A program made the position numbers and the translations under genes. The notes below the pieces were generated by a model. It was given only the letters and a program-made list of their open reading frames with translations. It was not told where the DNA came from and ran no database searches. Shown piece by piece: positions 23,712 to 62,298 of a DNA stretch of 64,000 nt. Position 1 is the first letter of the stretch, and each line of letters begins with the position of its first letter. The DNA comes from Patiria pectinifera (taxonomy: Eukaryota > Echinodermata > Asteroidea > Valvatida > Asterinidae): the NCBI GenBank assembly GCA_029964075.1, contig CM057140.1, forward strand, positions 9,566,643 through 9,630,642, read 5' to 3'.

Positions 23712-23954
23712 ATGCCTTTGTGCAATTGCCACGTGACTTTCTGCATCCACCAGAACTCAATAATGTGTAAACCAATTGCATGACTGGTCTTGAACAGAAT
23801 TGGGATATCGAACATTGCATGTCACAATAACTAGAATGTGAAATCTCACTTTGAAATGTAGTACTAAATTTCCAGCTATTGGATCTCGGTACCTAACTTG
23901 AGCTCATTCCCTTGACTTGTGGGGGAGGGGAGGAGGTCCCATCTCAAACTTATG
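23712..23954. other. G3 3' flank
   Basis: Nearly identical to the G7 3' flank from 62299 ('ctttctgcatccaccagaactcaataatgtg'). No gene. Confidence 0.6.
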
Positions 23955-33243: not shown

Positions 33244-33385
33244 CGTGACCCATATCATTGTGAACATGCGCAGTTGAAAATTGAACTGGGTAATTAGATC
33301 TGCGATGCTTACACTGAGTTTCTGCACTGTAATGGGTCTTTAAATTTAAAGATTCATTTGAAAAAAAGGTGAAAATGTGCAGTTA

Positions 33386-33733
33386 GGCCAACAACAAAAA
33401 GTCTCCGGTTTCTGGTATGGAGCTTGCCCAAAAAGTGGTGCGGCGATGCAGCTTTTTTTTTTTTTACCTGATTTTTTTTGCTTCAAATGTCGGCTGATGA
33501 CTGCAGATGGTGCCCGACTAAACTTAGTGCAAATATATGGGAGTCCAGAGAGGCCACATAAAGCTTATTCTCGACCATAACCCATCGAAAAACACGTTAA
33601 AATTGTGCAGCAGCAGGATTCCAGTCAAACCAGTGAGTTTGGCAGTTTTGAGACATCATCTTTCATTGAAAAAAAAACATTTTCATTTTGCGCGCGCACG
33701 CATACCAGAAACCGGAGACTTTTTTTTTTGGCC
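33386..33733 (-). mobile_element. MITE, PIF/Harbinger-like, copy 2
   Basis: Same family as 1186-1557 but in the opposite orientation. Flanked by TTA (33383-33385 and 33734-33736). Confidence 0.8.
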
Positions 33734-34304
33734 TTATGAAACTTTAAATAATTAAAACAGTACAATAACTGTTTCTAATTTTTGTTTTTCGCTTCATTGT
33801 ATTTTTAAGTTATGTTTAAGCTGTGCATCTTAGTAAAGAACAGGGGCCTGACGCTGCAGGGCACAACAATTTTTTAATACGTGGCACAGGGAATATTTAC
33901 AAGACCCAAGTCAAGGTGTCATGTGATGTACCGTACACAAAATTTTGTTTGCAAGTGGTTCTCAGCTGAATGTTTCTTAGCATATAAAAAAGCTTAACAA
34001 TGGTACTTAGCAGCTCAATGAAATTAAACCTAATTCTGTTCAGCAATTAATGCTTTTAGCAGTAGAACAAGGTAAAGCAATGACATGGCAATGAACAGCC
34101 TTGAGACATTTGTGCTTATAAACTTTTTATGCGTAAAATGTATTTAAAACATGAATGCAGATTCATGAAGTGCATGTAGCTTAGTTGCCTTAGTGTGCTT
34201 ATCATAAACACCAACTGTATTTAAAAACAAAAAACCTGTAAGTCTACCTTAAGTTTTCCCATTGAAGTTTTGTCAGAAACTTCTCTTCACAATGAGGTAC
34301 AAGC
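33734..34304. other. Spacer between G4 and G5, first part
   Basis: No gene. 33950-34250 is a diverged unit spacer ('caagtggtt.tcagctgaat', 'gcagattcatg', 'aacctgtaag'). Confidence 0.45.
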
Positions 34305-35402
34305 CAGTGGCCTAGCGAGAAATTTTCCGGGGGTTGGGGGGGGGGGGTTGGTTTACCATAGAGCAAGGACCCAAGGAGTCAGAACTCTTGGGCGATTTAC
34401 ATTTTGACCATTAACATACCAATCCCTCGGGAATGTCTATAGCTACAGCACTGTGACCGCAAGCCTCGACCATTCAAAGCGTGAATGCCAGCGGCCTTTG
34501 AACACGATGATCATCGCCGCCTTTTTAGTTGGTAACCAACAACCTCCCTATATGCTGCATAATAAGTCATGTCACGTCGCTGCTCTTTTTTGAAAAATAT
34601 ATTTTACGACAAGATAGGTTTTTACAACTGCGCAGTTGTTAGATGTGAGTTATGAACTTAAGTTAGCAATGTGCAGTTGTCGGTGCTTAAAAGCGTTATC
34701 TGTCCCTGTAATTTGGAGATAAATTGGATTTCTTTCAGATAAGTTTTCATGTATTTTCAGACATTTTAATTGGCAATTTATCATTGATGAAATGTGTTTT
34801 TTTTTTTTAAATTTCACAAGTTTTCACACTAAAGGTACAGAGCATTTTGTTCTTCATGAAATGATTGTTTTAGTGATGTTGACCACATTGTTAGCCAGTA
34901 TTAGCCAACCCCGAACAAACACTTCAAAATCATTCATTTTTAGCGATGTATGACAACTTCGCATGCGTATTTACCATGGTACTGTCTACGAAGCCATGCA
35001 AACTCCTTTTCTGGCTTTAGTGAGCGCGGATCTCTATTGTGTCGAGATTAGCGTAGTGAGCAACTGAGCAAGCTGGCGCCAGGTGCTTTCTATTGTAGCT
35101 TTCGAGCGCGGCGACCATCATTTTACTTTTGAAGTCTTGGAGTACGAACTCCTTGGGTCCTTGCTCTATGGGTTTACCAAGGGTTTTTTTTGGAAGGATG
35201 CCTGAAGTAGGTTACGGGGACGAAGCTAGGGTTTGAGAAACAGCCCGAGATTGCTGATGGTTCAGGCCAGGTCTGCATACCATGCGCCATATGCAAGCAA
35301 ACCATGTGCAGGGAGTGCATTCAGCACATTGATCAGAAGCGTGACTACCCTTCCCTCCCCCTCCTGTTTTTCTGTAGCCCCACCCTTGTCACTATGCCAC
35401 TG
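34305..35402. mobile_element. hAT-like element carrying a nested insertion
   Basis: Ends CAGTGGCCTAGCGA and, inverted, CAGTGGCATAGTGA. The flanking octamers GTACAAGC and CTAAAAGC agree at six of eight positions, as in an aged 8-bp duplication. The second copy of the 7-bp-duplication element (34357-35170) is inserted inside; about 285 bp of the host element remain. No transposase is seen. Confidence 0.6.
34357..35170 (-). mobile_element. 814-bp inverted-repeat element, copy 2 (7-bp target duplication)
   Basis: Same element as 24050-24861 in the opposite orientation, with the same CATAGAGCAAGG ends. It is flanked by GGTTTAC at 34350-34356 and 35171-35177, again seven bases. The two copies form a pair of long inverted repeats about 9.5 kb apart flanking G4. 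Confidence 0.85.
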
Positions 35403-37351: not shown

Positions 37352-37446
37352 CTACATGAAACTTTAATGTAAGATTAAAGCAGTAAAAACCTCTCTCTCA
37401 GTTTATTGTCCTACACGTGAAAAAAAACAGAACTAATTTTCCATAA

Positions 37447-37795
37447 GGCCAAAAAAACTAAGTCTCCGGTTTCTGGTATGGAGCTTGCCCAAAAAGTGGT
37501 GCGACCACGCGGCTTTCTTTTTTTTTACCTGATTTTTTTGCCTCAAATGTCGGCTGATGACTGCAAATGGTGCCTGACTAGACTTAGTGCAAATACATGG
37601 GAGTCCAGAGAGGCCACATAAAGCTTATTCTCGATCATAACCCCATCTAAAAACACGTTAAAATTGTGCAGCAGCAGGATTCCAGTCAAACCAGTGAATT
37701 TGGCGGTTTTGAGACATCATGTTTCATTGAAAAAAAAACTTTTTCATTTTGTCGACGCGCAGGCATACCAGAAACCGGAGACTTTTTTTTTGGCC
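37447..37795 (-). mobile_element. MITE, PIF/Harbinger-like, copy 3
   Basis: GGCC...GGCC with the 'gtctccggtttctgg' inverted repeat, flanked by TAA on both sides (37444-37446 and 37796-37798). The duplicated spacer at about 36210 ('ttccctaatggtgtg') is the empty site with a single TAA. Confidence 0.85.
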
Positions 37796-37817
37796 TAAGG
37801 GTGTTTTATCTCAGTAT

Positions 37818-38865: not shown

Positions 38866-41506
38866 ATGGACGTTCAGCCTGGACATTGCTGGCGTTGTGA
38901 GAGGCTCCTCCCTCAACATTCAGTGCCTTGCGAGTCTTGTAAGATGGCAAAGTACTGCAGCATGCCATGCCGAGACAGAGACAAAGCCAGACACGGAAGT
39001 GTAGAGTGCCAACTTTATGGGCTCAAAACATGTGCCTCATGTGGGAGAACAGCTCCAAATATGAGTGAGGTGAGATACACACCAAGGTTCATAACCATGA
39101 ACCTCAACAGGTTATGAACCTCGACATAAAATTCATACATGTTTGATGTACATGTACATGTACATAACCCTAAAAACAATGAGCATACCGATACATGTAA
39201 GGACTGTATAGTTAATCAAAACACAAGTATGGTCATTTCAGACGAAATGACTTATGACAGACTTGTGGGCACTTGGCTGTAACTCTGATGACCAAAAGCA
39301 ATAATCTCTCTCATGCCACTTGAGTTAAAATGAAAATGCGTGGTTCAGGAAATTGTTCAAGAAAATGGAATCTAGATTGCCTGACTCTTGTCAAAGAACA
39401 CTATGCAAACTTACATTCTGTGCCAGGTTGACCTTGCAGTCAAAATCAACTAAAAGTCTGTTTTCAGCAGTTAGCCTACATAAAGCAGGATTGACTGGCT
39501 GTGACTATTTATGTCACTTGATACAGCTATCCTTTGACTGTAGGCGATTGATAAGCCAGCTGTGCCTACCACTTGCATGTTTTTGTCTGTTGTTTGAATT
39601 TGACTAGTACAGTTGCTGTTGATGACTAGCCTGTGTAAAAGGCATGGCAGGGGAAGAGGATTGATTTTTTGACTGTCTGTGACTGTTCAAATAGCAGGAG
39701 GGTTAATGGGATTACAAACTTAGATCTGAAATGTTTGGCTTTTGAAATGTTTTAAGCCAAATCTGGCAGAAAGAACTCCTCTTCATATATTTTTAAGATG
39801 TCTTTTTTGGTCACTTTTTTTCTCAGTGTGCAGGTTGCAACAATGCGTGGTACTGCAACAAGAAGTGTCAACTGAGTAACTGGCCAGCTCATAAAGCGTC
39901 ATGCATTCGAGTAAAGCATACAATAAAACAGATGTCTGTCGAGTTTGCGGAGGGAAATTCAAAACTGGCATGTAACGCATGGTTTGCCGGCCCACCTTTC
40001 TATGTTGGGAACACTCTAGCTGAAGACTTTCTTAAACTTGCCAATAATGAGTTGTCTAATGAGGGGGCAGCTGAAGAGTTGACCAGGGACTTCCATGTCT
40101 TATCCGCTGGTTGTGGAGACTTGCGCAATACAGTGATGACAGCTGCTTCCTTGCCTGATGAGTACCAGGGAAAACTTCAAATAACTCTCAATGATTTTGA
40201 CCCTTTTGTCATGGCAAGGAATGTGCTGTTTCTCTTCATGTTGGTCCACTTCGCAGACACTGACTACATTGCTTCCAGTTTGACAACCATATGGTACTCA
40301 CTCCATATTTCCAAGAGAGAGTACGACTTGATCAAGACAAGCTTGGATGAACTCATTCAGATGACTGCTCAGCAACTCCATGATGCCACCAAAGGACTGG
40401 TGAGTGTCCTGGATGAAGATCTTAGGTATCTGTGTCAGGTTTGGAAAGGATGGCAATCATTGGAATGTCTACGAGAAAAGAGATCCTCCATTAATCTCAG
40501 AAAACAGAGAAAGACATTGTTTGAGACTAAAGCAGTGAAAACAGGTGTGAATCTGTACATTAATCGCCTGCCTCGTGAGAACAAACAGTTCATGAAGGAG
40601 TGGTTTGACCACGCACTGTTTGTCCCAACTGAAAGTCCCCAAAAAACACAACTGCCCTATGAAAATCCCACACTAACTGGAAGAGAAGGTAAAACATCTG
40701 CATCACCAGATATAACGCCACCGGAAGATGTCCCATTTGTGTACTGTGTTGATGTATCAACATTTCCTTACATGGTGTGGGACTGTTTGAGAGTAAGAGA
40801 GAACACCCCTGGAGCCCACCCCTCTCCGATGGTAATGTACCACAAGTACGTGACAAACCTCCTCCAGAAAGTCAAGAGTCTCATCCTTCAAGGAAGGCTC
40901 CTTATCTTTGTCTCCTTGGCCAACAGTCTGGACTTTCCGAATCACCATGAAACCTGGAGCATGCCCAACTATGACAGAATTTTCACCTCCAACCTTGCTG
41001 ACTATGATGGAGTCGCTAAACTCCTACAGACATTCAAACCACTTCTTAATGTTGCCAACAGCTACTCAACGATTGTCACTAATACTCTGAATTGGGTGGA
41101 GTTAGTCCCAGGAGCAAACATTGAATCTTTTCTTTTTTCTAATGTGTTTCAGAGATGTAAAGATTTGTGTATTTTAGACACCGGTTCATATACTGATGGC
41201 TTTAGCACCGTACGAGAGTATTATAACAATACCTCTCACTTTCTCCAGTATCTCCGAGCACATATCATGGCAGGGGGGCTTGGCATACCATCACTTAAGG
41301 AAGTACCATCATTTGAGAGTGTCAAGAAATATCACGGCCTCCAAATGCGTGACTTCCGGAAGGGACAGAACAAACTGGTTCCATTCCAGTATAGGCTGAA
41401 TGCAAGAATTCTTAATATGATGAATGGGTATGACAGAGCTGTGGAGTGGTATCTGCCTCAAAACAGTAAGGATCAGGACACACTAGGTAACTGCCAAGGC
41501 AAATAA
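38866..41506 (+). CDS. G5: two-MYND-finger, DUF4470-like protein, intact
   Basis: Exons are 38866-39069 and 39827-41506, phase 0, giving 627 aa, the longest of the array owing to a C-terminal extension after the common 'EWYLPQ'. The acceptor AG at 38862-38863 lies just ahead of the ATG. Finger 1 (C8 to C48) and finger 2 (C56 to C94, split by the intron) are complete. 'LSAGCGDLRNT' and 'LNDFDP' precede the core, which has two changes rare elsewhere ('MLVHFAD' and 'MTAQQL'). It is closest to G1 throughout, including promoter and leader, so the pair arose by duplication of a whole unit. The stop overlaps AATAAA at 41502-41507. Function unknown. Confidence 0.9.
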
Positions 41507-43239: not shown

Positions 43240-43636
43240 GTGAGTATTAAGTGAAAATTGAAGAAGAAAAAAGAAAATGAGATTTTTATTTTCAGGGAAG
43301 GTACAGAAATCCAGTTTGTCATCAAGGGATCATACTTTTCTCCAGCACTGGGAATTACTTGGCTGTTGGTGTGCTATCAGGTATTTTCTGTCGGGATAGG
43401 GTTTTATTCTTTGCAATCTCATGGAAAGTTCTGATAATAGTACAGTGTTATAATTCACATTTGTTCAGTTTGTTTGAGTGGGTTTTTTTTCATCATGTAG
43501 GCGTTAGACTATTTTGTGGTTTTCTTTTTTTTCTGTACCTGTGGTTATGGGGTATAGGAAGTGAAAAGCATATCTCTTTAAAACTAGACTTGAGGGCTAG
43601 TCCTTGCTGAGGACTGCGTATTGCTGAGGAAGCATC

Positions 43637-44067
43637 TGTAGTGGTTTGCTATATAAATAAGAACGCAACAACTCACCCTATAGTTCGTCTTTTGGACACC
43701 GATGATGAAGTCGAAGGACTCCAGGTAATACGCGAGTGTATAGCAATCCAATGGGGGCGAGCACACGCGGAGTCTGTGGGGGCGAGTTGGTCCGTGAAAG
43801 TGCTTCTCGATTTCGCGAGAAAAAGTCTCCCTCAAACGAGGTGAGTTCGCTCAAGGATCGTCAACTGCACGATCCAAAATAAAGTACAATAAAAACTGGA
43901 TACAACTGTACAAATGCTGATACTTTCAGCTAGTTCCGAGCTGGAATAAATCACGGAGAAAGTTCCGATAACTGTGAATGACTTTCACCACATGATGACA
44001 CGAGAACAACAGATGGCTGACCTAGCACGCTCATGAGCATAAGGTCAAAGTTGAAAAGGGCACCACA
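43637..44067 (-). mobile_element. Solo LTR in G6 intron 1, counterpart of the G7 gypsy element
   Basis: TGTAGTGG to GGCACCACA, flanked by CATC (43633-43636 and 44068-44071). The flanks on both sides are the same as around the full element 53517-58409 in G7, so this is the same insertion event. The left part carries bases diagnostic of the 53517 LTR and the right part bases diagnostic of the 57987 LTR, as expected after LTR-LTR recombination. Confidence 0.9.
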
Positions 44068-44152
44068 CATCCATTATAAGAGTGGGGATAGCTTTCTCTT
44101 GCGTGATCAATGCACGCTTCTTTTTTTTCTGTATTTTTAACTCTATTTTCAT

Positions 44153-44396
44153 TTCGGACTATTGAACCTTCGGACTAATTAACCTTATTCTAAATTTGGA
44201 CTATTAAACAAACCTTTGGAGAAATGAACCTTCGGATTAATGAACCTTCGGACTATTACATCAAATGTTCGGATTACCGAACCTTATTTCATTTTCAGAC
44301 TAACAAACCCCCTCTTAAGGAAATTTTGTGCATTCGGACTGTCGAACCTTTGGACTAAAGAACCTTCGGACAATCAGACCTTTGGACTATCAGGCG
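44153..44396 (+). repeat. Minisatellite of 'ttcggactaatgaacc' type
   Basis: About 15 degenerate units of roughly 15-17 bp in G6 intron 1. The same array is at 58497-58753 in G7. The open frames through it reflect the repeat only. Confidence 0.7.
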
Positions 44397-44771
44397 GTGT
44401 ATACATGTGCATCGAGACCAGTACATGCCAAGTATTCATACCCTCCTGATTCTTAGCCCATCAAAGTGCGCTGTCCAACTTTGGTAGCAAGTCACATAAG
44501 CTGCTAAAACCCCAGTACAGATTATTCAAGTCAGTAATTGGAATTGACGCATGCATATTGGGGCCGAGGATGTACGACGTTCCTGCATGTATCGTAAAGT
44601 CACACGTAACACTGGGATGTCGACAGTATGCCATGTAACATGTAGTGCCAATGCTAGTGGTATGCCAGTGGCAGCGCAGCCAAACTAAACCCGGCCAATT
44701 ACCGACTTGTTGTCAATTCTATTTAAAACAAATGCATGTATGTAAATACATTTTCTGTTACAGCGCTCATC

Positions 44772-47700
44772 ATGGATGTACAGCGTGGACATTGCTGGAG
44801 ATGTGAGAAAGTTCTTCCACAGCTGACTGTGCCTTGCAGCCGCTGCAATATGGCTGTCTACTGCAGCACATCCTGCTTGGGCAAGGACACGGCCAGGCAC
44901 AGCTCTGTTGAGTGCCAGATGTTTGGGCTACGACGGTGCGGCAATTGTGGAAAAACTCCTCCGAATATGAAAGAGGTATGATGCGTGTGAACTTATAAAT
45001 ACTTTTCATAAACTCAAACCCGCGAGCATTTGTGCTACGAACACCACCGAATCTGCCCAAACCTATGCCTGCCTATATAATAACGTACATAGGTAATTTT
45101 CTTGTATTTTATCATAACAAGGGAAATCAAGCTCCACTGAAGAAAGTTAATGACAACTACTGATTACAACTTATGGAAGAAAAGATGTATCGGCAATGCA
45201 TTTAATAAACTCAGTATAAACTCAATTTTTTTGTTCTTACGAAGAAAACCCAATTTTAAATTTTAGGCAACTGCATCCCTCAGAAAAAAAGCTTTTTATT
45301 TTTTATGTAAATATAATGCTCCAATTGGACATAATACAGATCCACCAAGCAAGAAGACTGGTTTCTGGTCCCTATTATTTTTTTCCGGGGGTTGAACTTG
45401 CAAATATCACTGACCAATATGCTGTCACCAATATGCTGACTCGACATGTCACTTACTGGAGATGACATTAGCTTAATGTTAACGACAAAGTTAATTTCTA
45501 CAAAAAAGGCAATTTATTCCACAGTCCATGAGTCCAGTAAAAACAAAATACCAAAAAAATATACTTTGGATTTTAGTGGGGAGGCATGGTTAGGATTAAA
45601 GGGGCACTGCATCCTGAAATCCCCGAAAATTTCATGTTTTTGATCGTTTACTTATCCTGTTTCAAACATCTGGTTGGAAGGAAACCAACCTAATGTCTTA
45701 CCGTTCCCGAGAAAAGACAACAAAAAACCCCAATTGTTTACATAGGATACGACGCAGTATGATACGTGTTTCCTGTCGTTTTCATACAATGTTCAATACA
45801 CGTTGTGTGTGTCTAGTGTTACACACGTACACAGCAGCGCACTCACGAACAGCGGTGACCAATCACCAATGCACAAAATGTCATTTCTTAAACGTCAGCA
45901 AAAGGCGAACCCTTACGGCTGGAATCATAACTAGCACGAACAGCCCGACTTTTTGGGGTAGCAAAAGTGGACCACGAGAGTCATTCTCACACACGAACAT
46001 TACAAGAATACTACAAAAGCATCCAGTTTTTAAAGGATAGTTGGGTGGATGTTTATATCCAACTCTTAAATGTTCTTTCCGACTAACATCATTTCATTTA
46101 AAATGCGCTTTGTAGCCCAATGGGGCGTATTCCAGGATGCAGTGTCCCTTTAAACTGATAAAAAATCCGCATTATACACATCTGCAGGGACAACCTGACC
46201 TGATATGCAAGCGGTTGTGTGTCCGAATGACACAAATACATTTGTGAATTAGGCATGAATTAAACATGCCTTTTCTCTTTTTCAGTGTGCGGGTTGCAGT
46301 AATGCATGGTACTGCAACAAGGAATGCCAACGAACTGACTGGAAATCCCACAAGCCATCATGCAGGGCAGCTGAAGATTCAATGAAAAAGGCAGCAAAGG
46401 CACTTCGCCAGCAACGCTCTGCAGCATACAAGATAAGCGGCAACTTTCCCTATTACATTGGTAACAATTTTGCCAGAGATTTCCTTCAACTTGAGGACAA
46501 TGAATTGACATCTGGAGTGAAGGAAGACAGTTTGGCGAGAGATTACCATATTTTGTCTGCTGGTTGTGGAAATCTACGCAACACAGTTTTGACAGCTGCT
46601 TCCTTGCCTGATGAGTACCACGGAAAACTTCACATCAGCCTCGATGATTTCGACCCTTTTGTCATGGCAAGGAATGTGCTGTTTCTGTTCATGTTGGTCC
46701 GCTTCGCAGACACTCACTACATTGCTTCCAGTTTGACAACCATCTGGTACTCACTCCATATTTACAAGAGAGAGTACGATTTGATCAAGACCAGCTTGGA
46801 TGAACTCACTCAGATGAGTGCTCAGCAACTCCACGACACCACCAAAGGACTGGTGAGTGTCCTGGATAAAGATCTTAGGTGTCTGTGTCAAGTTTGGGAA
46901 AAATGGCAGTCATTGGAATGCCAACGAGACCAAAAGACCTCAGTCAATCTCAAACAACAACGGAATGCACTCTTTGAGACAGACATATTAATGAGGGAGG
47001 GAGTGCCTTTTTATCTGGCAGAGTTATCCAAAAATGAGAAGAAAAGGATGAGAGAGTGGTTTGACCATGCTTTGTTTCTACCATCTGAATCACAAAAATC
47101 CGCTGTGCCTTTTGACAATCCCACTCTCACTGGAAGAGATTCTGATTGTTGGTATGACGATTTCACACCGATAGTCCCAAAAGATCACCAGTTTGTTTAC
47201 TGCATCAACACAGATGCATTTCCGTTTAAAGAGTGGGATTGCTTGAGAGTTAGAGAGTGCAGTACTGGATCCTACTCGTCTCCGATGGAAATGTATCACA
47301 GTTACGTGACAAACCTTCTCCAAAAAGTCAGGAGGCTGATTGTCCAAGAAAGGCTGTTTGTCCATGTGTTCTTGGACAACTGTCTCGTCTTTCCTGAGCG
47401 GCACCAATCCTTACAGATGACCAACTATGATCGCATTATCACCTCAAATCTTGCTGACATAGTTGGGTTTGCTAGGCTTCTCCAGACATTCAAGCCTCTT
47501 CTTAATGCCAGTAACAGATTCTCAGTGATTATCACTGAGACCATGAACTGGTTCAAATTCATACCAGAAGCCGACACCGATTCCATGTTGTGTCCACGCC
47601 AGCGGATTGAAGAGTGCAAAGTGGTATATTCTATTGACTGCAACAGATTGAGGTTTCCTGGCCAAAACAATACGAGAGACTATTTCAACAACACTCCTCA

Positions 47701-47944
47701 GTTTCTGCAATACCTCCGTGCAGACATCATGGCGGGTGGCCATGGAATACTGCCACTCAAAGATGTACCATCTCTTACCACCGTAAAGACATATCATGGC
47801 ATGCAGATGCGGGATTTCCGCAAGGAACTCAATAAATTTGTCCCCTTCAAGTATCGTGTAAATGCACGAGATCTTTCCATGGCAAATGGGTGCGACAGAG
47901 CCGTAGAGTGGTACCTCTCAAAAAGTGAGAAAAATTCAAGTTAG
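44772..47944 (+). CDS. G6: two-MYND-finger, DUF4470-like protein, intact and chimeric
   Basis: Exons are 44772-44975 (full exon from 44764) and 46286-47944, phase 0, giving 620 aa. The first exon, intron 2 and the start of the last exon are almost the same as G7. After the conserved core the protein switches to G4-type sequence ('KTSVNLKQQRNALF', 'LTGRDSDCWYDD', 'YVTNLLQKVRRLIVQERLF'), which continues through the stop and into the 3' flank. Both fingers keep all ligands; 'LSAGCGNLRNT' and 'LDDFDP' (N to D against other copies) are present. Because the reading frame is open throughout, the recombination made a potentially expressed hybrid. Intron 2 contains a 550-bp MITE. Confidence 0.9.
45600..46149. 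mobile_element. 550-bp piggyBac-like MITE in G6 intron 2
   Basis: Ends AGGGGCACTGCATCCTG and, inverted, AGGGACACTGCATCCTG, flanked by TTAA (45596-45599 and 46150-46153). G2 intron 2 at about 14899 ('ggttaaactgataa') is the matching empty site with one TTAA. The same insertion is in G7 (59948-60497). A 115-codon open frame inside is shared by both copies but has no recognisable features. Confidence 0.85.
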
Positions 47945-48976: not shown

Positions 48977-50389
48977 ACAATAAGGGCAGGCCCGGATCCG
49001 GGGGGGGGGGGGTAAAAAAAAACAGCTCTGTCAAAAAAAAATTTTCATAAAAATTCCTAAAAAAATAATTTGAAACACCCCCCAAGTATGCAGCGGAAAA
49101 AAAACTGTCTACATTTTAGAATTTTTTTTGAATTTTTCTGTTTTCAAACCTTTTCTGTAAAATACTTTTGAAACCTGAATGCGGATTCATGTACATTGTA
49201 GCTTGGCTGCTTATGAAAAACGCAATTTTTTTTTTTAACACAAGAATCTGTAAATAGTTAAAAGCCATTAATCTTTTCCAATTGATTTTGTTAGACAACT
49301 TCTTTTCATAATGATGTAAAGGCTGCACAAGGAATAATACGCATTAAAGTGGGCTCCTGTTGATTCACATGTTGGATGCACTGCATTCTCTGCAGTGTTG
49401 AAAAACACAAAAGTTTGTTATTATTAGATTGACATGTGATGTCTACAGATTGTAACTGCTTCTGTGTAACCCGAAAAAAGTATTCTGCTGGTGATGATAC
49501 AAAGTCCTTGAACAAGGGGTCTGGGGGCTTCTCCAAGTGATTTCATGAAAACATCAAACTTCAAAGCGATTCTGTGAACAGTTTACATGTTTTAAATTGT
49601 AATGTATAGGCCTACATGTATTTGAAATCTATTTTTTTTCCCCAAGGAGTATTTCCCTCCACGATACCAATGTGTACATATATGTAGATAAAAAAATATT
49701 AATAAAAGCTAAGATACTTGTGATGTCATACAGGAATTTCTTCTTATGATTTTTGAATCTCATTACGATTGGCCTGATGATGCCTGTTGAAGCAAACATT
49801 TCAAAGATGAAGTTCATTATTATATTTCTTTTAACTATACTCATTGTTCACCTTAAATGTTTAACCACTATGTAAAAATGGATAAAGCACAACCACAGTG
49901 CCTTTGGAAAACATAAAACTACTTGGGTTTTTTTCAAAGACATGCAATTTACATCATATTCTTCCATCTCTATGTAGGAATTATTGTAACATAATGTCTA
50001 AAGTGGCCCCACGGCATCACGATTATGTTATAAAATAATAACATCTACACATGTATTTGTAGGTTCCAATGACTCAATTATTTTCAAATTGCTGTATATT
50101 TCATCACAAGAATTATCAGAAAGTATGTGTATGTAAATTGTATGGAGAGCAAAAACTTGCCATCTTGCTCAGGCAAAGGCCATGTCTGAATCATCTGTCT
50201 AGAACTATGTCTCTATTTGTCTTTGTCAACCTGTACCGTTACATGTATTTATTAGCTCTGGATTAATGTCGTGTAAACTTGAAACGAAACTGAAACCAAC
50301 CCTGAGGTCGTTTAAGCCATCTTGTGAAAAACCCAAAATAAACCGAAATAATCTGAAGCAGTTCAGAAATTCACGCGGTGCAATATTAT
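48977..50389. other. Spacer between G6 and G7, first part
   Basis: Starts with a hAT-like end 'caggcccggatccgg' plus a G run (48986-49013) whose partner was not found. 49150-50230 is unit spacer, colinear with 18.05-18.4, 19.2-19.4, 12.6-12.9 and 42.3-42.7 kb. No gene. Confidence 0.5.
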
Positions 50390-50757
50390 GGCCAAAAAAA
50401 AAAAGTCTCCGGTTTCTGGTATGCTCGCGCGTCGCGCGCCGTAGCCATGCGTGTCGGCAAAATGAAAAAGTTTTTTTTTTCAATAAAAGATGATGTCTCA
50501 AACATTTTAACGTGTTTTAACTGATGCACAATTTTAACGTGTTTTTAACGTGATGGGGTTATGATCGAGAATAAGCTTTATGTGGCCTCTCTGGACTCTA
50601 ATATATTTGCACTAAGTTTAGTCGGGCACCATTTGCAGTCATCAGCCGACATTTAAAGCAAAAAAAAACAGGTTAAAAAAAAAATTAAAAAGCCGCGTCG
50701 CCGCACCACTATTTGGGCAAGCTCCATACCAGAAACCGGAGACTTTTTTGGGGGGCC
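50390..50757 (+). mobile_element. MITE, PIF/Harbinger-like, copy 4
   Basis: Same family as 1186-1557 and same orientation. Flanked by TAT on both sides (50387-50389 and 50758-50760), a departure from the TWA target of the other copies. Confidence 0.8.
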
Positions 50758-50784
50758 TATTGCAGAGTTACTGTGCCCAGGTAA

Positions 50785-51870: not shown

Positions 51871-52036
51871 AGGGAATAAATGTGTGCTTCGGAGGTTTTT
51901 ATCACTCTGTTTAAGACCACTTAGAGTCTGGGTGCTGATAATTACCCGAGCCGGAGGCGAGGGTAATTATCAGCACCCAGACTCTAAGTGGTCTTAAACA
52001 GAGTGATAAATACCGACGGAGCACATATTTATTCCC
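51871..52036. repeat. Near-perfect palindrome
   Basis: Arms of about 77 bp around a 13-bp centre (51948-51960). The inner 49 bases of each arm are essentially exact ('aagaccacttagagtctggg' and its inverse), the outer part looser. A strong cruciform or hairpin candidate, sitting between the foldback element and the G7 promoter. A further inverse match of 'attcataaatacc' (about 52038) occurs at 52487. Confidence 0.8.
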
Positions 52037-52869: not shown

Positions 52870-53516
52870 GTGAGTATTAAGCAATTATTGAGAAAACAAG
52901 AAAATCAGGGCTTTTTCCAGGGAAGGTACAGAAATCTAGTTTGTGTGGCAAGGGATCATACTTTTTTCTAGCAGGGATTAAAGGCTGCTGATTCTTTGCA
53001 ATCCTCTGAACCAACGTCAACCAAGCGTGGGAATGTGCATGTGATTTGCGGGTCTATCACGCACAGTCTATAATGTGTAGGCCCACTGTAACGTTCTGAG
53101 TCTTCACCGAACCGTACGGTATGATTCTTTTCTGAGAGACGACGATTTTCATGGGACGCGGGTAAGTTCAGGCACAAAAAGCCAGATATTCGGTTGTTGT
53201 CAGTTCGGGTCAGTTTTTCACCAGCACTGGGAATTACTTAGCTGTTGGTGTGCTATCAGGTATTTTCTGTTGGGATAGGGTTTTATTCTTTGCAATCCCG
53301 TGGAAAGTTCTGATAATAGTACAGTGTTATAATTCACATTTGTTCAGTTTGTTTGAGTGGGTTTTTTTTCATCATGTAGGCGTTAGACTATTTTGTGGTT
53401 TTCTTTTTTTTTCTGTACCTGTGGTTATGGGGTATAGGAAGTGAAAAGCATATCTCTTTAAAACTAGACTTGAGGGCTAGTCCTTGCTGAGGACTGCGTA
53501 TTGCTGAGGAAGCATT

Positions 53517-53914
53517 TGTAGTGGTTTGCTACATAAATAAGAACGCAACAACTCACCCTATAGTTCGTCTTTTGGACACCGATGACGAAGTCGAAGGACT
53601 CCAGGTAATACGCGAGTGTATAGCAATCCAATGGGGGCGAGCACACGCGGAGTCTGTGGGGGCGAGTTGGTCCATGAAAGTGCTTCTCGATTTCGCGAGA
53701 AAAAGTCTCCCTCAAACGAGGTGAGTTCGCTCAAGGATCGTCAACTGCACGATCCAAAATAAAGTACAATAAAAACTGGATACAACTGTACAAATGCTGA
53801 TACTTTCAGCTAGTTCCGAGCTGGAATAAATCACGGATAAAGTTCCGATAACTGTGAATGACTTTCACCACGCGACGACACGAGAACAAGGTCAAAGTTG
53901 AAAAGGGCACCACA
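53517..53914 (-). repeat. 3' LTR of gypsy element
   Basis: 398 bp, TGTAGTGG...CACCACA on the plus strand. It differs from the 5' LTR by substitutions, a 'tgtgggggcg' stretch and the loss of about 40 bp near its right end, so the insertion is not recent. Confidence 0.9.
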
Positions 53915-53992
53915 TTAGCCCCCTCCCAGATGGTGAATTGGGTAAAAAGGAATGAACCAGCGATAGAAAACAAATGCGAGGTTCAGCCAATG

Positions 53993-55512
53993 TCAATAAC
54001 TTCCACATAACGCTTGGGCCAACGGACATGACGCCCTGACTTGGTTGACCTGGTGACGGGTGGTGTTTGAGGTGATGCTGGGAGTTGAGGTGTCACTGGA
54101 AGTTGTGAAGGTGGTGCTTGTGGTGGTGAAGAAGTGTTGGCATGTGAGGAACATCCTGTACGGCTTGGTGAGTGCCGGAGGAGTTAGAGGTGGTTGTACT
54201 CTCATCGGAAATTGTAGCTTCTGTGTACGCCACCTTGAGACGATCAATGCTGACTTGCTCACGCTTGTTGGCAATAGACAAGGTGAAATATTTGTCTTTG
54301 CGGCCGAGTACAAGGAAAAGACGCGTGTCCTTGCTGGTGAAAGTTGAGCCATGTGATGTTGTAGTCGATCTACGAATGAGCTGCAATCAAGCAGAGTGGT
54401 ATCTTTGGCAGGGTCAACAAACTGGCCCGGAAGACGCATTGTAGTGCCATAAACCAGTTCAGCAGGAGAGCAACCGATGTCAGACTTGACCATACCACGA
54501 ATGCCCAGCAGTGTGATGGGTAGGTACTCAGTCCATCGAGATGGGTCGAGATGAGACTTCAGAGATGCCTTGAGCTGACGGTGAAAGCGTTCTACCAAAC
54601 CGTTGGACTGTGGGTGATAAGAGGTGGTTCGAATGCGAGTACTCCCAAGAAGTTTGGTGAGGGATGTGAACAGTGCTGACTCGAATTGACGTCCCCTGTC
54701 TGTAGTGATGGATGCTGGCGTTCCGAAAACAGAGATCCATCTGTCTACAAATGCTTTGGCTACTGACTCGGCTGTGATGTCACTGATAGGGATTGCCTCA
54801 GGCCATCGTGTGTATTGATCTATGCAGGTAAGCAGGTATGAGAAACCATTGGATGATGGGATCGGTCCAACCAGGTCAATATGGGCGTGTTGGAAACTGG
54901 CATCAGGCATCTGGAACGTGCCCAACGGTGCTTTAGTATGACAATGAATTTTCGACCTTTGACACGGAGAACATTCACGAGCCCATTTGCGTACATCGCG
55001 CTTGACATCTGACCAGACACAACGAGCTGTGATGAGCTTCTCTGTAGCCTTGGCACCAGGGTGGGATAAACCATGAATGGCATTGAAAACAGGCCGTCTG
55101 TGTCCTGCAGGCACGACTGGGCGTGGGTTCCCAGTGGAAACATCGCAAAGTATAGTGCCATTGGCAGTTGGAAGGGGGAGGTCCTTGAGGACGAGGCTGG
55201 AAGTGGAGTTTTGCAAGCCTGCAATCTCTTCATCCTCCTTCTGGTCTGCTGCAATCTGGCTGCAGCAACTACATTATCGGTGCCCTTGATGTGGCGGATG
55301 TCGGAGGTGTACTGCGATATGTAGTCCAGATGACGGATCTCACAAGGAGAGTGTCGGTCAGGCCTGGAATGCAGAGCATGAGTGAGTGGTTTGTGGTCAG
55401 TGAAGACACAGAACCGACGACCCTCAAGCATGTGTCTGAAGTGTCGTATGGTCAGGTACATTGCGAGGAGCTCTCGACCAAAAGCACTATACCGTGACTC
55501 AGTTGCTGTCAA
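53993..55512 (-). pseudogene. RNase H and integrase region of gypsy element
   Basis: RNase H-like 'TESRYSAFGRELLA' and 'FTDHKPLTHAL' lie at 55512 to about 55370. The integrase frame 55216-53993 has the HHCC finger ('HGLSHPG' ... 'CSPCQRSK') and the D, D, E residues in 'HIDLVGP', 'TTDRGRQF' and '[12 protein letters not shown]'. A frameshift separates the two parts. Confidence 0.8.
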
Positions 55513-55519
55513 CTTCTGG

Positions 55520-56723
55520 GAGAAGAAAGCAATGGGTTGGGACTCTCCCGGATTACCTTGCTGAAGGACCCCGCCAACTGCAGTGTCGTATGCATCAACT
55601 GTGACGCTTAACGGCAGGGTGGTGTCGGGGTGAACGAGCAGCGTAGCACTGGATAGGGCTGCCTTGATGTCTTGGAAGGCCTGTTGGTGACGAGGATCCC
55701 AAGTAAGTGGCTTGCGAGGCTGGTTGTTGTGAGTTGCGAGGAGGTCATTCAGTGGGGCAAGGATGCAGGCACAGTTGGGGATGAATCTCCTGTAGAAGTT
55801 GACTAGACTTGACTAGTTGAAGTGGGTTGTGGGAAGTCCTGGATCGCGGAGACCTTGTCTGCGAGCAGACGAATACCCTGCTTGTCTACACGGTGTCCGA
55901 GGAATTGCAGCTCTGACACTCCAAAGGTGCATTTGCTGGTATTGATCACAATTCCGTAGTGCTGTAACCGGTCGAAGAGCAGACGGAGATGTTCCTCATG
56001 CTGCTCTGGCAACTTGCTGGCAACGAGTATGTCATCCATGTAAACATACACGAATGAGAGTCCGCGGACGACCTTGTCCATGAAACGTTGGAAGGTCTGG
56101 GCAGCTTTTCGTAATCTAAATGGCATGCGAACGAACTCGTAGAGACCGAAAGGGGTAATGATTGCGGTTTTGTGCACATCTGAAGGTTCGACCGGTATCT
56201 GGTGGTATACACGTACCAAGTCGATCTTGCTGAAGACTGAACATCCTGCAAGATTGGATGCAAAAACCTGGAGATGGGCGATGGTTCAGGTGACATGATT
56301 CAGGGCTCTGTAGTCCCCGCATGGGCGCCAGTCGCCTGGTGTCTTCTTGGGGACCATGTGGAGAGGACTGGACCAATTGCTGTCAGAGGGCCGAATAATG
56401 CCAAAGTCCATCATGTTGTTGAACTCCTCCTTTGCTATGGCAGTACGATCTGGAGCTAGACGCCGAGGACGAGCTGTGACTGGTGGTCCTGTGGTAACTA
56501 TGCAATGCGTGATGTCATGCAGCACAGGTGCATCTTTGCCTGTCGGTTGAGTGATCTGTGGAAATTCACGAAGAACTTTGTCGTACCTGGTTGGGTTGGA
56601 TGGCTGGACCAATATGGGGCTGACGGGCATTTCTGGCGCCACTGTTCCAGTAACTGAGAGGCTAGTAGTGGTGTCAATAAGCCTACGTCGCGAAACATCT
56701 ACAAGGAGTTTGTAGTAATGCAA
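55520..56723 (-). pseudogene. Reverse transcriptase region of gypsy element
   Basis: The N-terminal part (56286-56723) has 'SPLHMVPKKTPGDWRPCGDY' and ends at a stop. The palm part (55803-56219) has 'TPFGLYEFVRMPF' and the catalytic 'YVYMDDILVAS' box, with 'FRLRKAAQTF' where FGL-N-A is usual. Stops at both junctions make the enzyme non-functional. Confidence 0.8.
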
Positions 56724-57069
56724 AAAGTCTGCACCCAGTATTGGTGTTGGTGTGTCCGCCAGGAAGAAAATCCAGCGACAAGTGTGTCTGAGTCCGATGT
56801 TGAATGTTACCGACTTTTGTCCATATTAAAGTAGGTATGCTGGTATCATTTGCGGCCTGCAGTGAAAACGTAGACGGGTGTTTCCTTTCGACTGCGTTGG
56901 GTGGAAAAATGCTTACAGCCGCCCCAGTGTCTACTAGGAATTTCCGTTTGTGGAAAGAGTCATTGATGAACAACAAGCGGCCAGGTTGGGTACCAGGTGG
57001 AAGTGCCGCGCCTATCCCCTGGTGGGTTCGTTTCCCTGCTGAGTGGTGTAGGAGCAAGGCTGGACGCAT
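56683..57069 (-). pseudogene. Protease region of gypsy element
   Basis: Contains the aspartic protease motif 'FLVDTGAAVSIFPP'. A frameshift near 56.82 kb separates it from the reverse transcriptase frame. Confidence 0.75.
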
Positions 57070-57879
57070 TTATGGGCCTCAGCACCGAAATGGCGATGGT
57101 ACCAACACAATGTTTGTGTGGTCGCGGTGTCAGAGGGCGTTGATGCTTGGTCACGGCTGGCACTGCGTGGGCGGGTACCACTCTGGCTACGGGAACGGGA
57201 CTGGCGTTTCAGTTGCGCCTGCGTGAAGCTCACTTGCATGGTGAGTTTGGAGATCTGGTCTCGCAGCTCAGCAAGTTCCCCAGACGAGGAGGGAGCCGGT
57301 GTAGTCACAACGTTGACCGGAGGGACATAGACCTCAAGGATGCGATCAGCGAGTGCAGCAAGCTGCTCTAGCGACACTGAGTCCCTGGATGAAGCAAGGA
57401 CAAGCTGTGCGTTGGATGGGAGCCGTTGTAGGAAGAGTTGCTTGAAAATTCCCTCCTCTAGTTTGCGTTCACCGAGTAGTTGACGCATGCGACGCAATAA
57501 CTGCGAGGGTTTCTTGTCACCTAACTCTTCTTCGGTGAGTGGCATCTGCAGCCGTTTTTGCTCAGAAGCTGACGTACGTTTAATCATTTCTTCCTTGAGC
57601 TTTTGATACGGGTTGTCCTTGGGAGGAGTGATCACCAAATCACGGACTTCTTGAATAATCTCAGGTTGCACCACAGCCAAAATGTGGGCAAATTTGGTGT
57701 CTTCACGCTTGATTCCCCGGGTATGGAATTGTGCTTCCGCTTGCACAAACCAAATGAGGGGATCTGCTGGCCAGAAGGGGGGTAGCTTGATGGACAGTGC
57801 TCCAATTTGTGGCTTATCCTCCTCTGGCATGTCTGATTGATCAACAGTTTTGGATGATTCACCCTTTTCCGTGCTCATG
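57012..57879 (-). pseudogene. gag region of gypsy element
   Basis: Open for about 290 codons from an ATG at 57877-57879. It carries a capsid-like block ('PPFWPADPLIWFVQAEAQF') and near the end a C/H-rich 'CWYHRHFGAEAHKC' motif typical of one group of gypsy gag proteins. The C-terminus runs into a frame change near 57.03 kb. Confidence 0.75.
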
Positions 57880-57986
57880 ATGCTGGTGAAAATTGCAAGG
57901 TGGTTCAAAGAAAACCAGTTGTTGGGCTTAAGTTAAAATGTCACCAAATATCGAAGGTGTAGCTCTTTGATGTCAGGGTCACCAAA

Positions 57987-58409
57987 TGTAGTGGTTTGCT
58001 ACATAAATAAGAACGCAACAACTCACTCTATAGTTCGTCTTTTGGACACCGATGACGAAGTCGAAGAACTCCAGGTAATACGCGAGTGTATAGCAATCCA
58101 ATGGGGGCGAGCACACGCGGAGTCCGAGTTGGTCCGCGAAAGTGCTTCTCGATTTCGCGAGAAAAAGTCTGGTGAGTTCGAGGTGAGTTCGCTCAAGGAT
58201 CGTCAACTGCACGATCCAAAATAAAGTACAATAAAAACTGGATACAACTGTACAAATGCTGATACTTTCAGCAAGTTCCGAGCTGGAATAAATCACGGAG
58301 AAAGTTCCGATAACTGTGAATGACTTTCACCACGTGATGACACGAGAACAAAAGATGGCTGACCTAGCACACTCATTAGCATAAGGTCAAAGTTGAAAAG
58401 GGCACCACA
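57987..58409 (-). repeat. 5' LTR of gypsy element
   Basis: 423 bp. Contains the segment 'agatggctgacctagcac' that is missing from the 3' LTR but present in the G6 solo LTR. Confidence 0.9.
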
Positions 58410-58496
58410 CATCCATTATAAGAGTGGGGATAGCTTTCTCTTGCTTGATCAATGCACGCTTCTTCTTTTTTTTTCTGTATTTTTAACTCTATTTTC

Positions 58497-58753
58497 ATTT
58501 CGGACTATTGAACCTTCGGACTAATAAACATTATTCTAAATTTGGACTAACGAACCTTCGGAGAAATGAACCTTCGGATTAATGAACCTTCGGATTAATG
58601 AACCTTCGGACTATTACATCAAATGTTCGGATTACCGAACCTTATTTCATTTTCGGACTAACAAACCCCCTCTTAAGGAAATTTTGTGCATCGGACTGTC
58701 GAACCTTCGGACTAAAGAACCTTCCGACTATCAGACCTTTGGACTATCAGGCG
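58497..58753 (+). repeat. Minisatellite of 'ttcggactaatgaacc' type, G7 copy
   Basis: Duplicate of 44153-44396, with one additional 'ggattaatgaacctt' unit. Confidence 0.7.
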
Positions 58754-59134
58754 GTACATGTACATACATGTGCATCGAGACCAGTACATGCCAAGTATTC
58801 ATACCCTCCTGATTCTTAGCCAATCAAAGTGCGCTGTCCAACTTTGGTAGCAAGTCCCATAAGCTGCTAAAACCCCAGTACAGATTATTCAAGTCAGTAA
58901 TTGGAATTGACGCATGCATATTGGGGCCGAGGATGTACGACGTTCCTGCATGTATCGTAAAGTCACACGTAACACTGGGATGTCGACAGTATGCCATGTA
59001 ACATGTAGTGCCAATGCTAGTGGTATGCCAGTGGCAGCGCAGCCAAACTAAACCCGGCCAATTACCGACTTCTTGTCAATTCTATTTAAAACAAATGCAT
59101 GTATGTAAATACATTTTCTGTTTCAGCGCTCATC

Positions 59135-62100
59135 ATGGATGTACAGCGTGGACATTGCTGGAGATGTGAGAAAGTTCTTCCACAGCTGACTGTGCCTTGC
59201 AGCCGCTGCAATATGGCTGTCTACTGCAGCACACCATGCCTGGGCAAGGACACGGCCAGGCACAGCTCTGTTGAGTGCCAGATGTTTGGGCTACGACGGT
59301 GCGGCAATTGTGGAAAAACTCCTCCAAATATGAAAAAGGTATGATGCGTGTGAACTTATAAATACTTTTCATAAACTCAAACCCGCAAGCTTTTGTGCTA
59401 CGAACACCACCGAATCTGCCCAAACCTATGCCTGCCTATATAATAACGTACATAGGTAATTTTCTTGTATTTTATCATAACAAGGGAAATCAAGCTCCAC
59501 TGAAGAAAGTTAATGACAACTACTGATTACAACTTATGGAAGAAAAGATGTATCGGCAATGCATTTAATAAACTCGGTATCAACCCAATTTTAAATTTTA
59601 GGCAACTGCATCCCTCACAAAAAAGCTTTTTATTTTTTATGTAAATATAATGCTCCAATTGGACATTATACAGATCCACCAAGCAAGAAGACTGGTTTCT
59701 GGTCCCTATTATTTTTTTTCCGGGGGAGGGGGGGGGGTTGAACTTGCAGATATCACTGACCAATATGCTGTCCCCAATATGCTGACTCGACATGTCACTT
59801 ACTGGAGATGACATTAGCTTAATGTTAACGACATAGTTAATTTCTACAAAAAAGGCAATTTATTCCACAGTCCATGAGTCCAGTAAAAACAAAATACCAA
59901 AAAAAAAAAAACTTTGGATTTTAGTGGGGAGGCATGGTTAGAATTAAAGGGGCACTGCATACTGAAATCCCCGAAAATTTCATGTTTTTGATCGTTTACT
60001 TATCCTGTTTCAAACATCTGGTTGGAAGGAAACCAACCTAATGTCTTACCGTTCCCGAGAAAAGACAACAAAAAACCCCAATTGTTTACATAGGATACGA
60101 CGGAGTATGATACGTGTTTCCTGTCGTTTTCATACAATGTTCAATACACGTTGTGTGTGTCTAGTGTTACACACGTACACAGCAGCGTACTCACGAACAG
60201 CGGTGACCAATCACCAATGCACAAAATGTCATTTCTTACACGTCAGCAAAAGGCGAACCCTTACGGCTGGAATCATAACTAGAACGAACAGCCCGACTTT
60301 TTGGGGTAGCAAAAAAGGACCACGAGAGTCATTCTCACACACGAACATTACAAGAATACTACAAAAGCATCCAGTTTTTAAAGGATAGTTGGGTTGATGT
60401 TTATATCCAACTCTTAAATGTTCTTTCCGACTAACATCATTTCATTTAAAATGCGTTTTGTAGCCCAATGGGGTGTATTCCAGGATGCAGTGTCCCTTTA
60501 AACTGATAAAAATCCGCATTATACACATCTGCAGGGACAACCTGACCTGATATATGCAAACGGTTGTGTGTCCGAAACACACAGTACATTTGTGAATCAG
60601 GCATGAATTAAACATGCCTTTTCTCTTTTTCAGTGTGCGGGTTGCAGTAATGCATGGTACTGCAACAAGGTATGCCAACGAACTAACTGGAAATCCCACA
60701 AGCCATCATGCAGGGCAGCTGAAGATTCAATGAAAAAGGCAGCAAAGACACTTTGCCAGCAACGCTCTGAAGCACGCATGATAAGAGGCAAATTTCCCTA
60801 TTACATTGGTAACATTTTTGCCAAAGATTTCCTTCAACTTGAGGACAATGAATTGACATCTGGAGTGAAGGAAGACAGTTTGGCGAGAGATTACCATATT
60901 TTGTCTGCTGGTTGTGGAAATCTACGCAACACAGTTTTGACAGCTGCTTTCTTGCCTGGTGAGTACCAGGGAAAACTTCACATCAGCCTCAATGACTATG
61001 ACCCTTTTGTCATGGCAAGGAATGTGCTGTTTCTCTTCATGTTGGTCCGCTTTGCAGACACTGACTACATTGCTTCCAGTTTGACGACCATCTGGTACTC
61101 ACTCCATATTTCCAAGAGAGAGTACGACTTGATCAAGACAAGCTTGGATGAACTCATTCAGATGAGTGCTCAGCAACTTCATGAGGCCACCAAAGGACTG
61201 GTGAGGCTCCTGGATGAGGACCTCAGTTATCTGCACATGGTTTGGGAAAAGTGGCAATTATTAGAATGTCAACGACACAAAAGCACCTCAATCAATCTCA
61301 GACAACAAAGGAAGACACAATTTCAGAAGGAAGACGTGGCAGAAACGTTATCTGGCTATTTTGAAGAGTTATCTCACTCTGACAAGAAGAAGGTGGAAGA
61401 GTGGTTCGACCATGCAATGTTTTTTCCAATTGAAAGAAATGAAAAGGATATGCCATTTGACAACCCAACGCTAACTGCACGTGAACCTCAATTTACGTCC
61501 AAGGAACCTGAAGAGTCCAAGTTTGTTTACAGTGTACATTCAGATGTATTTCCCTACCAAGAGTGGGACTGCCTCAGAGTAAGAGAGAACACTCCTGGAT
61601 CCCACTCCTCTCCGATGGTGATGTACCACAAGTACGTGACAAACCTCCTCCAGAAAGTCAAGAGTCTCATCCTTCAAGGAAGGCTCCTTATCCATGTCTC
61701 CTTGGCCAACTGTCTGGACTTTCCTAATCACCATCAAACCTTGAACATGCCCAACTATGACCGAATCTTCACCTCCAACCTGGCTGACTTTATCGGCCTT
61801 CCTAGGCTTCTCCACACATTCAAGCCCCTTCTGAATACTACTAACAGCTCCTCAGTGATTGTCACTGAGTACATGAACTGGTTCAGATTAATACCAGAAG
61901 CCAACGTAAATTTCCTATTCTCTGACATGTCTCAGGCCACATTCAAAGATTGGCAAGTTCTGCGCATAAAATGTCTCACTGCATTCCATGCAGATACCAA
62001 AAAACCCAAGCCCATTCACCCCGGAAACCTACTTGAGTATTTTGACAACACCTTCTACTTCCTCCAATATCTCCGGGCAGATATCATGGGAGGGGGACGT

Positions 62101-62298
62101 GGGATTCCAGCACTCCAAGCTGTTCCCACGTTCACGAGTGTGAAGAAGTACCACGGTATGGAAATGCGTGACTTTAGGAAGGGGCTGAACAAGCTGGTAC
62201 CATTCATGTATCGTATAAATGCTAGGGATCTTACTATACTCAATGGTAGTGACCGAACTGTGGAGTGGTGTTTGCCTAAAAGTGATGCTTCAACCTAG
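59135..62298 (+). CDS. G7: two-MYND-finger, DUF4470-like protein, intact
   Basis: Exons are 59135-59338 (full exon from 59127) and 60634-62298, phase 0, giving 622 aa. The first exon ends in AAG rather than GAG, so residue 68 is Lys instead of Glu, beside the splice site. Both MYND fingers are complete; in the second, 'CNKVCQRTNW' replaces 'CNKECQRTDW' of G6. 'LSAGCGNLRNT', 'LNDYDP' and the core follow, then a G2/G3-type C-terminal half ('STSINLRQQRK', 'EKDMPFDNPTL', 'LNMPNYDRIFTSNLADF'). The 5' side is a duplicate of G6 and the 3' flank a duplicate of G3. Intron 2 holds the 550-bp MITE. Confidence 0.9.
59948..60497. mobile_element. 550-bp piggyBac-like MITE in G7 intron 2
   Basis: Same element and site as 45600-46149, flanked by TTAA (59944-59947 and 60498-60501). 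Confidence 0.85.

What the first reader, a model, noticed from the sequence alone, without database searches (positions are those of the whole stretch)
43637..44067. Solo LTR in G6 and full gypsy element in G7 are the same insertion; crossover point visible
Flanks of the solo LTR and of the full element are the same on both sides, so the insertion predates the unit duplication. The solo LTR has bases typical of the 53517 LTR up to 43931 and bases typical of the 57987 LTR from 43958 on, including the 'agatggctgacctagc' segment absent from the former. This places the LTR-LTR crossover in about 27 bp and documents loss of some 4.5 kb from one paralogue.
Basis: seen in the sequence. Interest (0 to 1): 0.8.

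Follow-up and report, generated by a model that had tools for sequence, protein, structure and literature searches.

The report
Solo LTR in recombined gene array
Two neighbouring gene copies carry the same old jumping-gene insertion, whole in one and shrunk to a single end repeat in the other; this is a common kind of DNA loss, and the copied stretch around it also joined two genes into one open chimeric gene.

Summary
A 431-bp solo LTR (43637-44067) and a 4,893-bp Ty3/gypsy-type element (53517-58409, coding strand minus) share both flanks and target-site duplication: one insertion. The solo LTR matches the 53517 LTR up to 43931 and the 57987 LTR from 43958, with one exception (43794) in 11 difference events.

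Two parts of the interpretation need correction. First, the shared stretch is not a duplicated unit but about 3.5 kb (about 43341-46829) at about 97% identity between units far less alike on either side. At about 46829 the G6 gene switches from G7-like (95% left, 69% right) to G4-like (75% left, 92% right): an open chimeric MYND/DUF4470 gene. The insertion predates this exchange, not the old unit duplication. Second, the 27-bp interval assumes the LTRs already differed before copying. Likelihoods barely separate a hybrid from later private mutations (about 1 log unit); the single-switch order has directional permutation P 0.024 (11 events) or 0.11 (8 single bases). Three CpG-polarised sites favour a hybrid but bound the switch only to 43795-43993. 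No outgroup LTR was found; an assembly join inside the LTR is not excluded.

The parts
43637..44067 (-). Solo LTR of the Ty3/gypsy-type element, 431 bp, in the G6 tract
   Evidence: Ends and alignment to both LTRs of the full element
43633..43636 (.). Left target-site duplication CATC of the solo LTR
44068..44071 (.). Right target-site duplication CATC of the solo LTR
43931..43958 (.). Apparent switch interval: last base typical of the 53517 LTR to first base typical of the 57987 LTR; CpG-polarised sites alone bound it only to 43795-43993
53517..53914 (-). Left LTR of the full element (3' LTR in its coding direction); lacks the 33-bp segment
57987..58409 (-). Right LTR of the full element (5' LTR in its coding direction)
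53915..57986 (-). Interior of the full element; separate open pieces match DUF7041, RVT_1, RT RNase H, Integrase_H2C2 and rve; the RT, RNase H and integrase pieces lie in three different frames
57969..57984 (-). Primer-binding-site-like sequence TGGTGACCCTGACATC next to the right LTR (tRNA match not tested)
53915..53928 (-). Polypurine-tract-like sequence TGGGAGGGGGCTAA next to the left LTR
53513..53516 (.). Left TSD of the full element, CATT
58410..58413 (.). Right TSD of the full element, CATC
43341..46829 (.). G6 copy of the high-identity tract shared with G7 (limits approximate)
   Evidence: Identity profile
53220..61177 (.). G7 copy of the tract, carrying the full element (limits approximate)
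   Evidence: Identity profile
46259..47941 (+). G6 MYND/DUF4470 open frame (561 codons, stop to stop), chimeric: G7-like up to about 46829, G4-like after
44772..44978 (+). MYND-like first coding exon of the G6 gene by inference; its ATG lies 704 bases after the solo LTR; end taken at the last codon before the in-frame stop

Best explanation
A Ty3/gypsy-type element inserted upstream of a MYND/DUF4470 gene in an already old tandem array. At about the same age, or slightly later, a stretch of about 3.5 kb with this insertion was copied from the G7 lineage into the neighbouring G6 unit by ectopic recombination (conversion-like, with homologous sequence beyond both limits, the right limit inside an exon). 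This made a chimeric G6 gene. In the G6 copy, before, during or after this copying, homologous recombination between the two LTRs removed the interior and one LTR (4,462 bp by the difference in length), leaving a probably hybrid solo LTR. Shown: common insertion, shared flanks and TSD, tract limits, chimeric gene, order of differences with one exception. Inferred: direction G7 to G6, type of recombination, order of tract copying and LTR loss, and that the switch marks the crossover.
For: Flanks, ends and TSD. Tract limits. G6 gene: 544 of 571 compared positions identical to G7 left of 46829 and 751 of 1091 right of it; against G4, 412 of 547 left (from 46278) and 1022 of 1109 right. The G7 gene resembles the 22-kb unit throughout (21989-23957 vs 60552-62552, 85.85% over 2007 columns), so G6 is taken as the recombinant. 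LTR-LTR single-base divergence is 8 of 382 columns without the 8-base block, or 16 of 390 with it, against 56 of 2423 in the non-exon flanks; insertion and copying cannot be separated by age. 10 of 11 events fit one switch (directional permutation P 0.024, two-way 0.048). Sites 43795, 43993 and 43996 are CpG in one LTR and TpG in the other LTR and in solo, probably derived states shared with 53517 on the left and with 57987 on the right. Rough expectation of parallel CpG changes is 0.06-0.54 for one to three such changes per lineage, rates set by me. The window is CpG-poor, o/e 0.58. PMC2686159 takes identical TSDs around a solo LTR as the mark of intra-element recombination (passages seen).
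Against: One event (43794) breaks the single switch; with the 8 single-base events only, directional P is 0.11 and two-way 0.23. Polarity-free likelihood of single-base events: hybrid -12.66, no shared history -13.69, with one parameter more for the hybrid; too close to decide. The CpG argument rests on three sites, two of them 3 bases apart, and on CpG being ancestral. The exon part of the tract, 46230-46829, is more diverged (29 of 599) than the rest, which one copying event does not predict. No outgroup LTR was available.
Confidence: 0.72

Rival explanations
1. The solo LTR arose by LTR-LTR recombination, but the apparent switch is not the crossover: the bases that look diagnostic are mutations private to one or other G7 LTR after copying, and the crossover could lie anywhere in the LTR. 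(This refines rather than excludes the main reading; confidences are not exclusive.)
For: LTR-LTR divergence without the block about equals flank divergence, so few differences need predate copying; likelihood with no shared history is only about 1 log unit worse. The 8-base block of the 57987 LTR looks like a local copy of its neighbour, GGTGAGTTCGA at 58171 followed by GGTGAGTTCG, found in that LTR alone, i.e. private.
Against: Clustering of the two classes left and right (directional P 0.024, 11 events) and three CpG-polarised shared states.
Confidence: 0.25
2. Assembly artefact: the G6 site holds a full element too, and the assembler jumped from one LTR to the other inside a stretch where they are identical.
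For: Such a join would give the same hybrid; the LTRs are identical over 94 bases at 43837-43930 and 26 at 43932-43957. No reads were available.
Against: The G7 element was assembled through although its LTRs are alike too; the solo LTR has bases of its own at 43652, 43706 and 43992, and the G6 flanks differ from those of G7.
Confidence: 0.08
3. Solo and full alleles segregated at one locus, and unequal recombination between homologues later placed both side by side.
For: Provirus and solo-LTR alleles of one insertion are known to share the same junctions (PMC6298018, passages seen); nothing in the window orders LTR loss against tract copying.
Against: No positive evidence; needs the LTR loss to be no younger than the copying.
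Confidence: 0.25
4. The solo LTR came from crossover between LTRs of two neighbouring copies of the same duplicated insertion, deleting a whole unit between them, rather than within one element.
For: Because the copies stem from one insertion, TSDs would match in this case as well, so the TSD criterion does not exclude it (inference).
Against: Needs a third copy that is now lost.
Confidence: 0.07

Closest known systems
Solo LTRs from LTR-LTR recombination (HERV proviruses, PMC6298018; maize Diguus element in the P1-wr cluster, PMC2686159; passages seen)
   Same: One LTR left between matching TSDs; interior and other LTR gone; full and solo forms share junctions
   Different: Here full and solo forms are paralogues in one array, not alleles, and the LTRs differ enough to attempt placing the switch
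LTR-LTR breakpoints in Ty1 circles of yeast (PMC4751563, passages seen)
   Same: Switch located, as an interval, from bases that differ between the two LTRs
   Different: There from reads of circular DNA against the LTRs of the element itself; here from one genomic solo LTR against a paralogous element, so polarity matters
Non-allelic gene conversion among human LTRs (PMC4921805, passages seen)
   Same: Stretches copied between diverged paralogues
   Different: Maximum tracts given there are 14-450 bp; the tract here is about 3.5 kb and spans an insertion
Ty3/gypsy (Metaviridae) LTR retrotransposons (recalled)
   Same: LTR ends, TSD, PPT-like tract, RT-RNase H-integrase order
   Different: No departure from the kind was found; the family within it was not determined

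Membership tests
Solo LTR from LTR-LTR recombination | Single complete LTR without interior, between matching TSDs | tested here: met
   CATC-LTR-CATC, 431 bp
Solo LTR from LTR-LTR recombination | Same insertion site as a full element | tested here: met
   Both flanks shared with the full element. An empty site could not be shown: units 1 and 2 gave no match to the sequence next to the LTR
Solo LTR from LTR-LTR recombination | LTR is a hybrid of the two parental LTRs | tested here: inconclusive
   10 of 11 events fit, but models differ by about 1 log unit and there is no outgroup
Ty3/gypsy LTR retrotransposon | pol order RT, RNase H, integrase (criterion recalled) | tested here: met
   Separate pieces on the minus strand: RVT_1 in 55806-56285, RNase H in 54823-55812, integrase in 53996-55273
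Ty3/gypsy LTR retrotransposon | LTRs TG...CA, short TSD, polypurine tract (criteria recalled) | tested here: met
   TG...CA, 4-bp TSD, TGGGAGGGGGCTAA next to the LTR
Ty3/gypsy LTR retrotransposon | PBS complementary to a host tRNA | not tested
   PBS-like sequence seen next to the LTR; no tRNA compared
Ty3/gypsy LTR retrotransposon | Position in an RT tree | not tested
   No tree built
Ectopic gene conversion tract | High-identity stretch bounded on both sides by diverged homologous sequence | tested here: met
   About 97% inside (85 mismatches in 3022 flank positions); outside 65-70% left and 46-83% right per window
Ectopic gene conversion tract | No crossover of the flanks | tested here: inconclusive
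   G7 has about 241 extra bases at its left tract limit and G6 becomes G4-like at the right limit; unequal crossovers are not excluded

The most novel reading that the evidence does not exclude
One event made both the chimeric gene and the solo LTR: while the tract was being copied from G7 into G6, repair synthesis jumped from the first LTR to the second, skipping the interior. Solo LTRs would then be a by-product of gene conversion in arrays rather than of a separate deletion.
Probability: 0.12. Interest if true: 0.5.

Novelty: new member of a known kind. Interest (0 to 1): 0.27.

Why it matters
It is a tidy natural record of how gene arrays change: an insertion marks a tract exchange that also produced an open chimeric gene, and the same insertion shows LTR-mediated loss of about 4.5 kb. 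It also carries a general caution: reading an LTR crossover point from three sequences needs an outgroup when the insertion is scarcely older than the duplication.

Tried and rejected
Unit duplication as the event that copied the insertion: rejected, because identity is high only within about 43341-46829. Finding an unoccupied site in other units: units 1 and 2 gave no match to the sequence next to the LTR on either side, so no empty site could be shown. Finding further LTR copies as outgroup: one exact 30-base pattern in genome contigs (prokaryote genomes) and one exact 22-base pattern in viral contigs gave 0 matches; a search with the RNase H piece in viral contigs gave 2 pattern matches, none confirmed. 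These collections may leave out the window's own genome, and that genome could not be searched. Literature: six searches were answered; no paper of that library held both DUF4470 and MYND. For PMC6298018, PMC4921805, PMC2686159 and PMC4751563 I saw search listings with the start of the abstract and the passages returned, not the whole texts.

Full report
Observation. The three-way alignment shows common flanks on both sides and TSD CATC/CATC around the solo LTR, CATT/CATC around the full element. The left flank differs at 5 of 292 positions, the right at 80 of 2730. These are one insertion.

The element. Its coding strand is minus. Of six separate open pieces, four matched Pfam: in coding order DUF7041 (57015-57932), RVT_1 (55806-56285), RNase H (54823-55812) and integrase (53996-55273); the pieces 56289-56825 and 56686-57069 matched nothing. 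A polypurine-tract-like sequence adjoins the left LTR and a primer-binding-site-like sequence the right LTR. RT, RNase H, integrase is the order of Ty3/gypsy elements (recalled). These three pieces lie in three different frames, so pol is not one open frame. The 57987 LTR is therefore the element's own 5' LTR.

The surroundings. The window holds a tandem array of genes with MYND and DUF4470 domains (of 10 proteins scanned, 6 matched both, 1 MYND only, 3 neither). The G6 and G7 copies differ at 85 of 3022 flank positions (left plus right), about 97% identity, from about 43341 to 46829. Beyond that, in windows of 100 columns, identity is 65-70% in three windows on the left (88% in the 43 bases next to the limit) and 46-83% in nine windows on the right. 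So the copies of the insertion were not made by the old unit duplication but by a later exchange of about 3.5 kb. At the right limit the G6 gene changes partner: 544 of 571 positions match G7 left of 46829 and 751 of 1091 right of it; for G4 (31-32 kb) the figures are 412 of 547 (from 46278) and 1022 of 1109. The open frame, 561 codons from stop to stop, runs through this joint. G7 resembles the unit at 22 kb throughout its gene (85.85% over 2007 columns), so I take G6 as the recombinant; the direction G7 to G6 is inferred from this. At the left limit G7 has about 241 additional bases, 52974-53214.

The crossover. The two full-element LTRs differ from each other, with solo siding with one, in 11 events: six with the 53517 LTR (43677, 43717, 43775-43782, 43795, 43829-43836, 43931) and five with the 57987 LTR (43794, 43958, 43993, 43996, 44008-44040). 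Ten of 11 fit one switch between 43931 and 43958. Among all 462 orders of these events, 2.4% do as well in this direction and 4.8% in either; with the 8 single-base events alone, 11% and 23% of 70.

Why this is weaker than it looks. The G7 LTRs are not the parents of the solo LTR but later descendants of their copies. A mutation in one G7 LTR after the copying makes solo look like the other LTR wherever the crossover was. The LTRs differ at 8 of 382 columns without the 8-base block, or 16 of 390 with it, and the non-exon flanks at 56 of 2423, so most LTR differences may postdate the copying. A Poisson comparison of the single-base events (the two 8-base events and the 33-bp segment as such left out) gives log likelihoods of -12.66 for a 53517-then-57987 hybrid, -13.69 for no shared history, -13.59 for all-53517, -13.69 for all-57987 and -13.69 for the reverse hybrid; with flank data -15.98, -16.62, -16.57, -16.62 and -16.62. 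That does not decide.

What polarity can be had. At 43795 the 57987 LTR has CpG, and solo and the 53517 LTR have TpG; at 43993 and 43996 the 53517 LTR has CpG, and solo and the 57987 LTR have TpG. The window is short of CpG (o/e 0.58) and rich in TpG and CpA (1.29), while the LTRs keep CpG (1.03-1.19), so CpG is the likelier ancestor. Then solo shares derived bases with the 53517 LTR on the left and with the 57987 LTR on the right, which a tree without recombination gives only through parallel changes. A rough expectation of parallel CpG changes is 0.06 to 0.54 for one to three such changes per lineage at 50 positions, rates set by me, against three seen; two of the three lie 3 bases apart and may not be independent, and the reverse polarity is not excluded. 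This favours a hybrid, but bounds the switch only to 43795-43993. The exception at 43794 is itself a CpG loss in the 53517 LTR, readily read as a later private change.

Mechanism. The most likely history is insertion, exchange of the tract between units at about the same age or soon after, and LTR-LTR recombination in the G6 copy. Loss may have come before (as an allele), during or after the exchange; the window does not order these. PMC2686159 (passages) uses identical TSDs to tell intra-element recombination from recombination between separate insertions; here copies of the same insertion would also share TSDs, so that criterion is weaker.

Result against the reading. The exon part of the tract (46230-46829) differs at 29 of 599 positions, more than the intergenic part, and at 46600-46799 the 15-kb unit matches G6 as well as G7 does (94% and 93%). 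A single exchange does not predict this; further short exchanges probably followed.

Comparison. Solo LTRs sharing junctions with full elements (PMC6298018, passages), breakpoints placed by LTR differences in yeast Ty1 (PMC4751563, passages) and non-allelic conversion of LTRs (PMC4921805, passages) are all described. This is a new case of known processes.

Limits. The organism was not identified. The own-genome search did not complete in 6 of 6 tries, so no outgroup LTR and no read evidence were available; an assembly join between LTRs in G6 remains possible though unlikely.

Noticed in passing
46259-47941: Open MYND/DUF4470 frame that is a clear recombinant, G7-like before and G4-like after about 46829.
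   Followed up: yes
40200-40399, 15400-15599, 22438-22637, 61001-61200, 9709-9908: About 200 bp of the MYND/DUF4470 gene is 96-98% identical in the listed comparisons among several units whose neighbouring parts are far less alike; local homogenisation or strong constraint.
   Followed up: partly
24050-24861 and about 34356-35171: Insertion of about 0.8 kb present as two copies in opposite orientation, 96% identical over 817 columns, with inverted ends (CATAGAGCAAGGACCCAAGGA) and about 7-bp target duplications; absent at the matching place near 62.7 kb. Looks like a non-autonomous DNA transposon.
   Followed up: partly
1183-1558, 33359-33736, 37418-37798, 50387-50758: Four copies of a repeat of about 370 bp, two in each orientation. 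In the two copies whose ends were printed (1183 and 50387) the ends are inverted: GGCC, a run of A, GTCTCCGG.
   Followed up: no
51872-52036: Stretch of 165 bp that matches its own reverse complement at about 90% and could fold into one hairpin.
   Followed up: no
52974-53214: About 241 bp found in G7 and not in G6, at the left limit of the exchanged tract, between imperfect copies of TTTTTCACCAGCA.
   Followed up: partly
44153-44393 and 58544-58750: 16-bp tandem repeats just right of the insertion, laid out differently in G6 and G7.
   Followed up: no
58171-58191: In the 57987 LTR alone, 8 bases are replaced so that GGTGAGTTCGA stands next to GGTGAGTTCG, as if copied from the neighbouring sequence.
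   Followed up: partly
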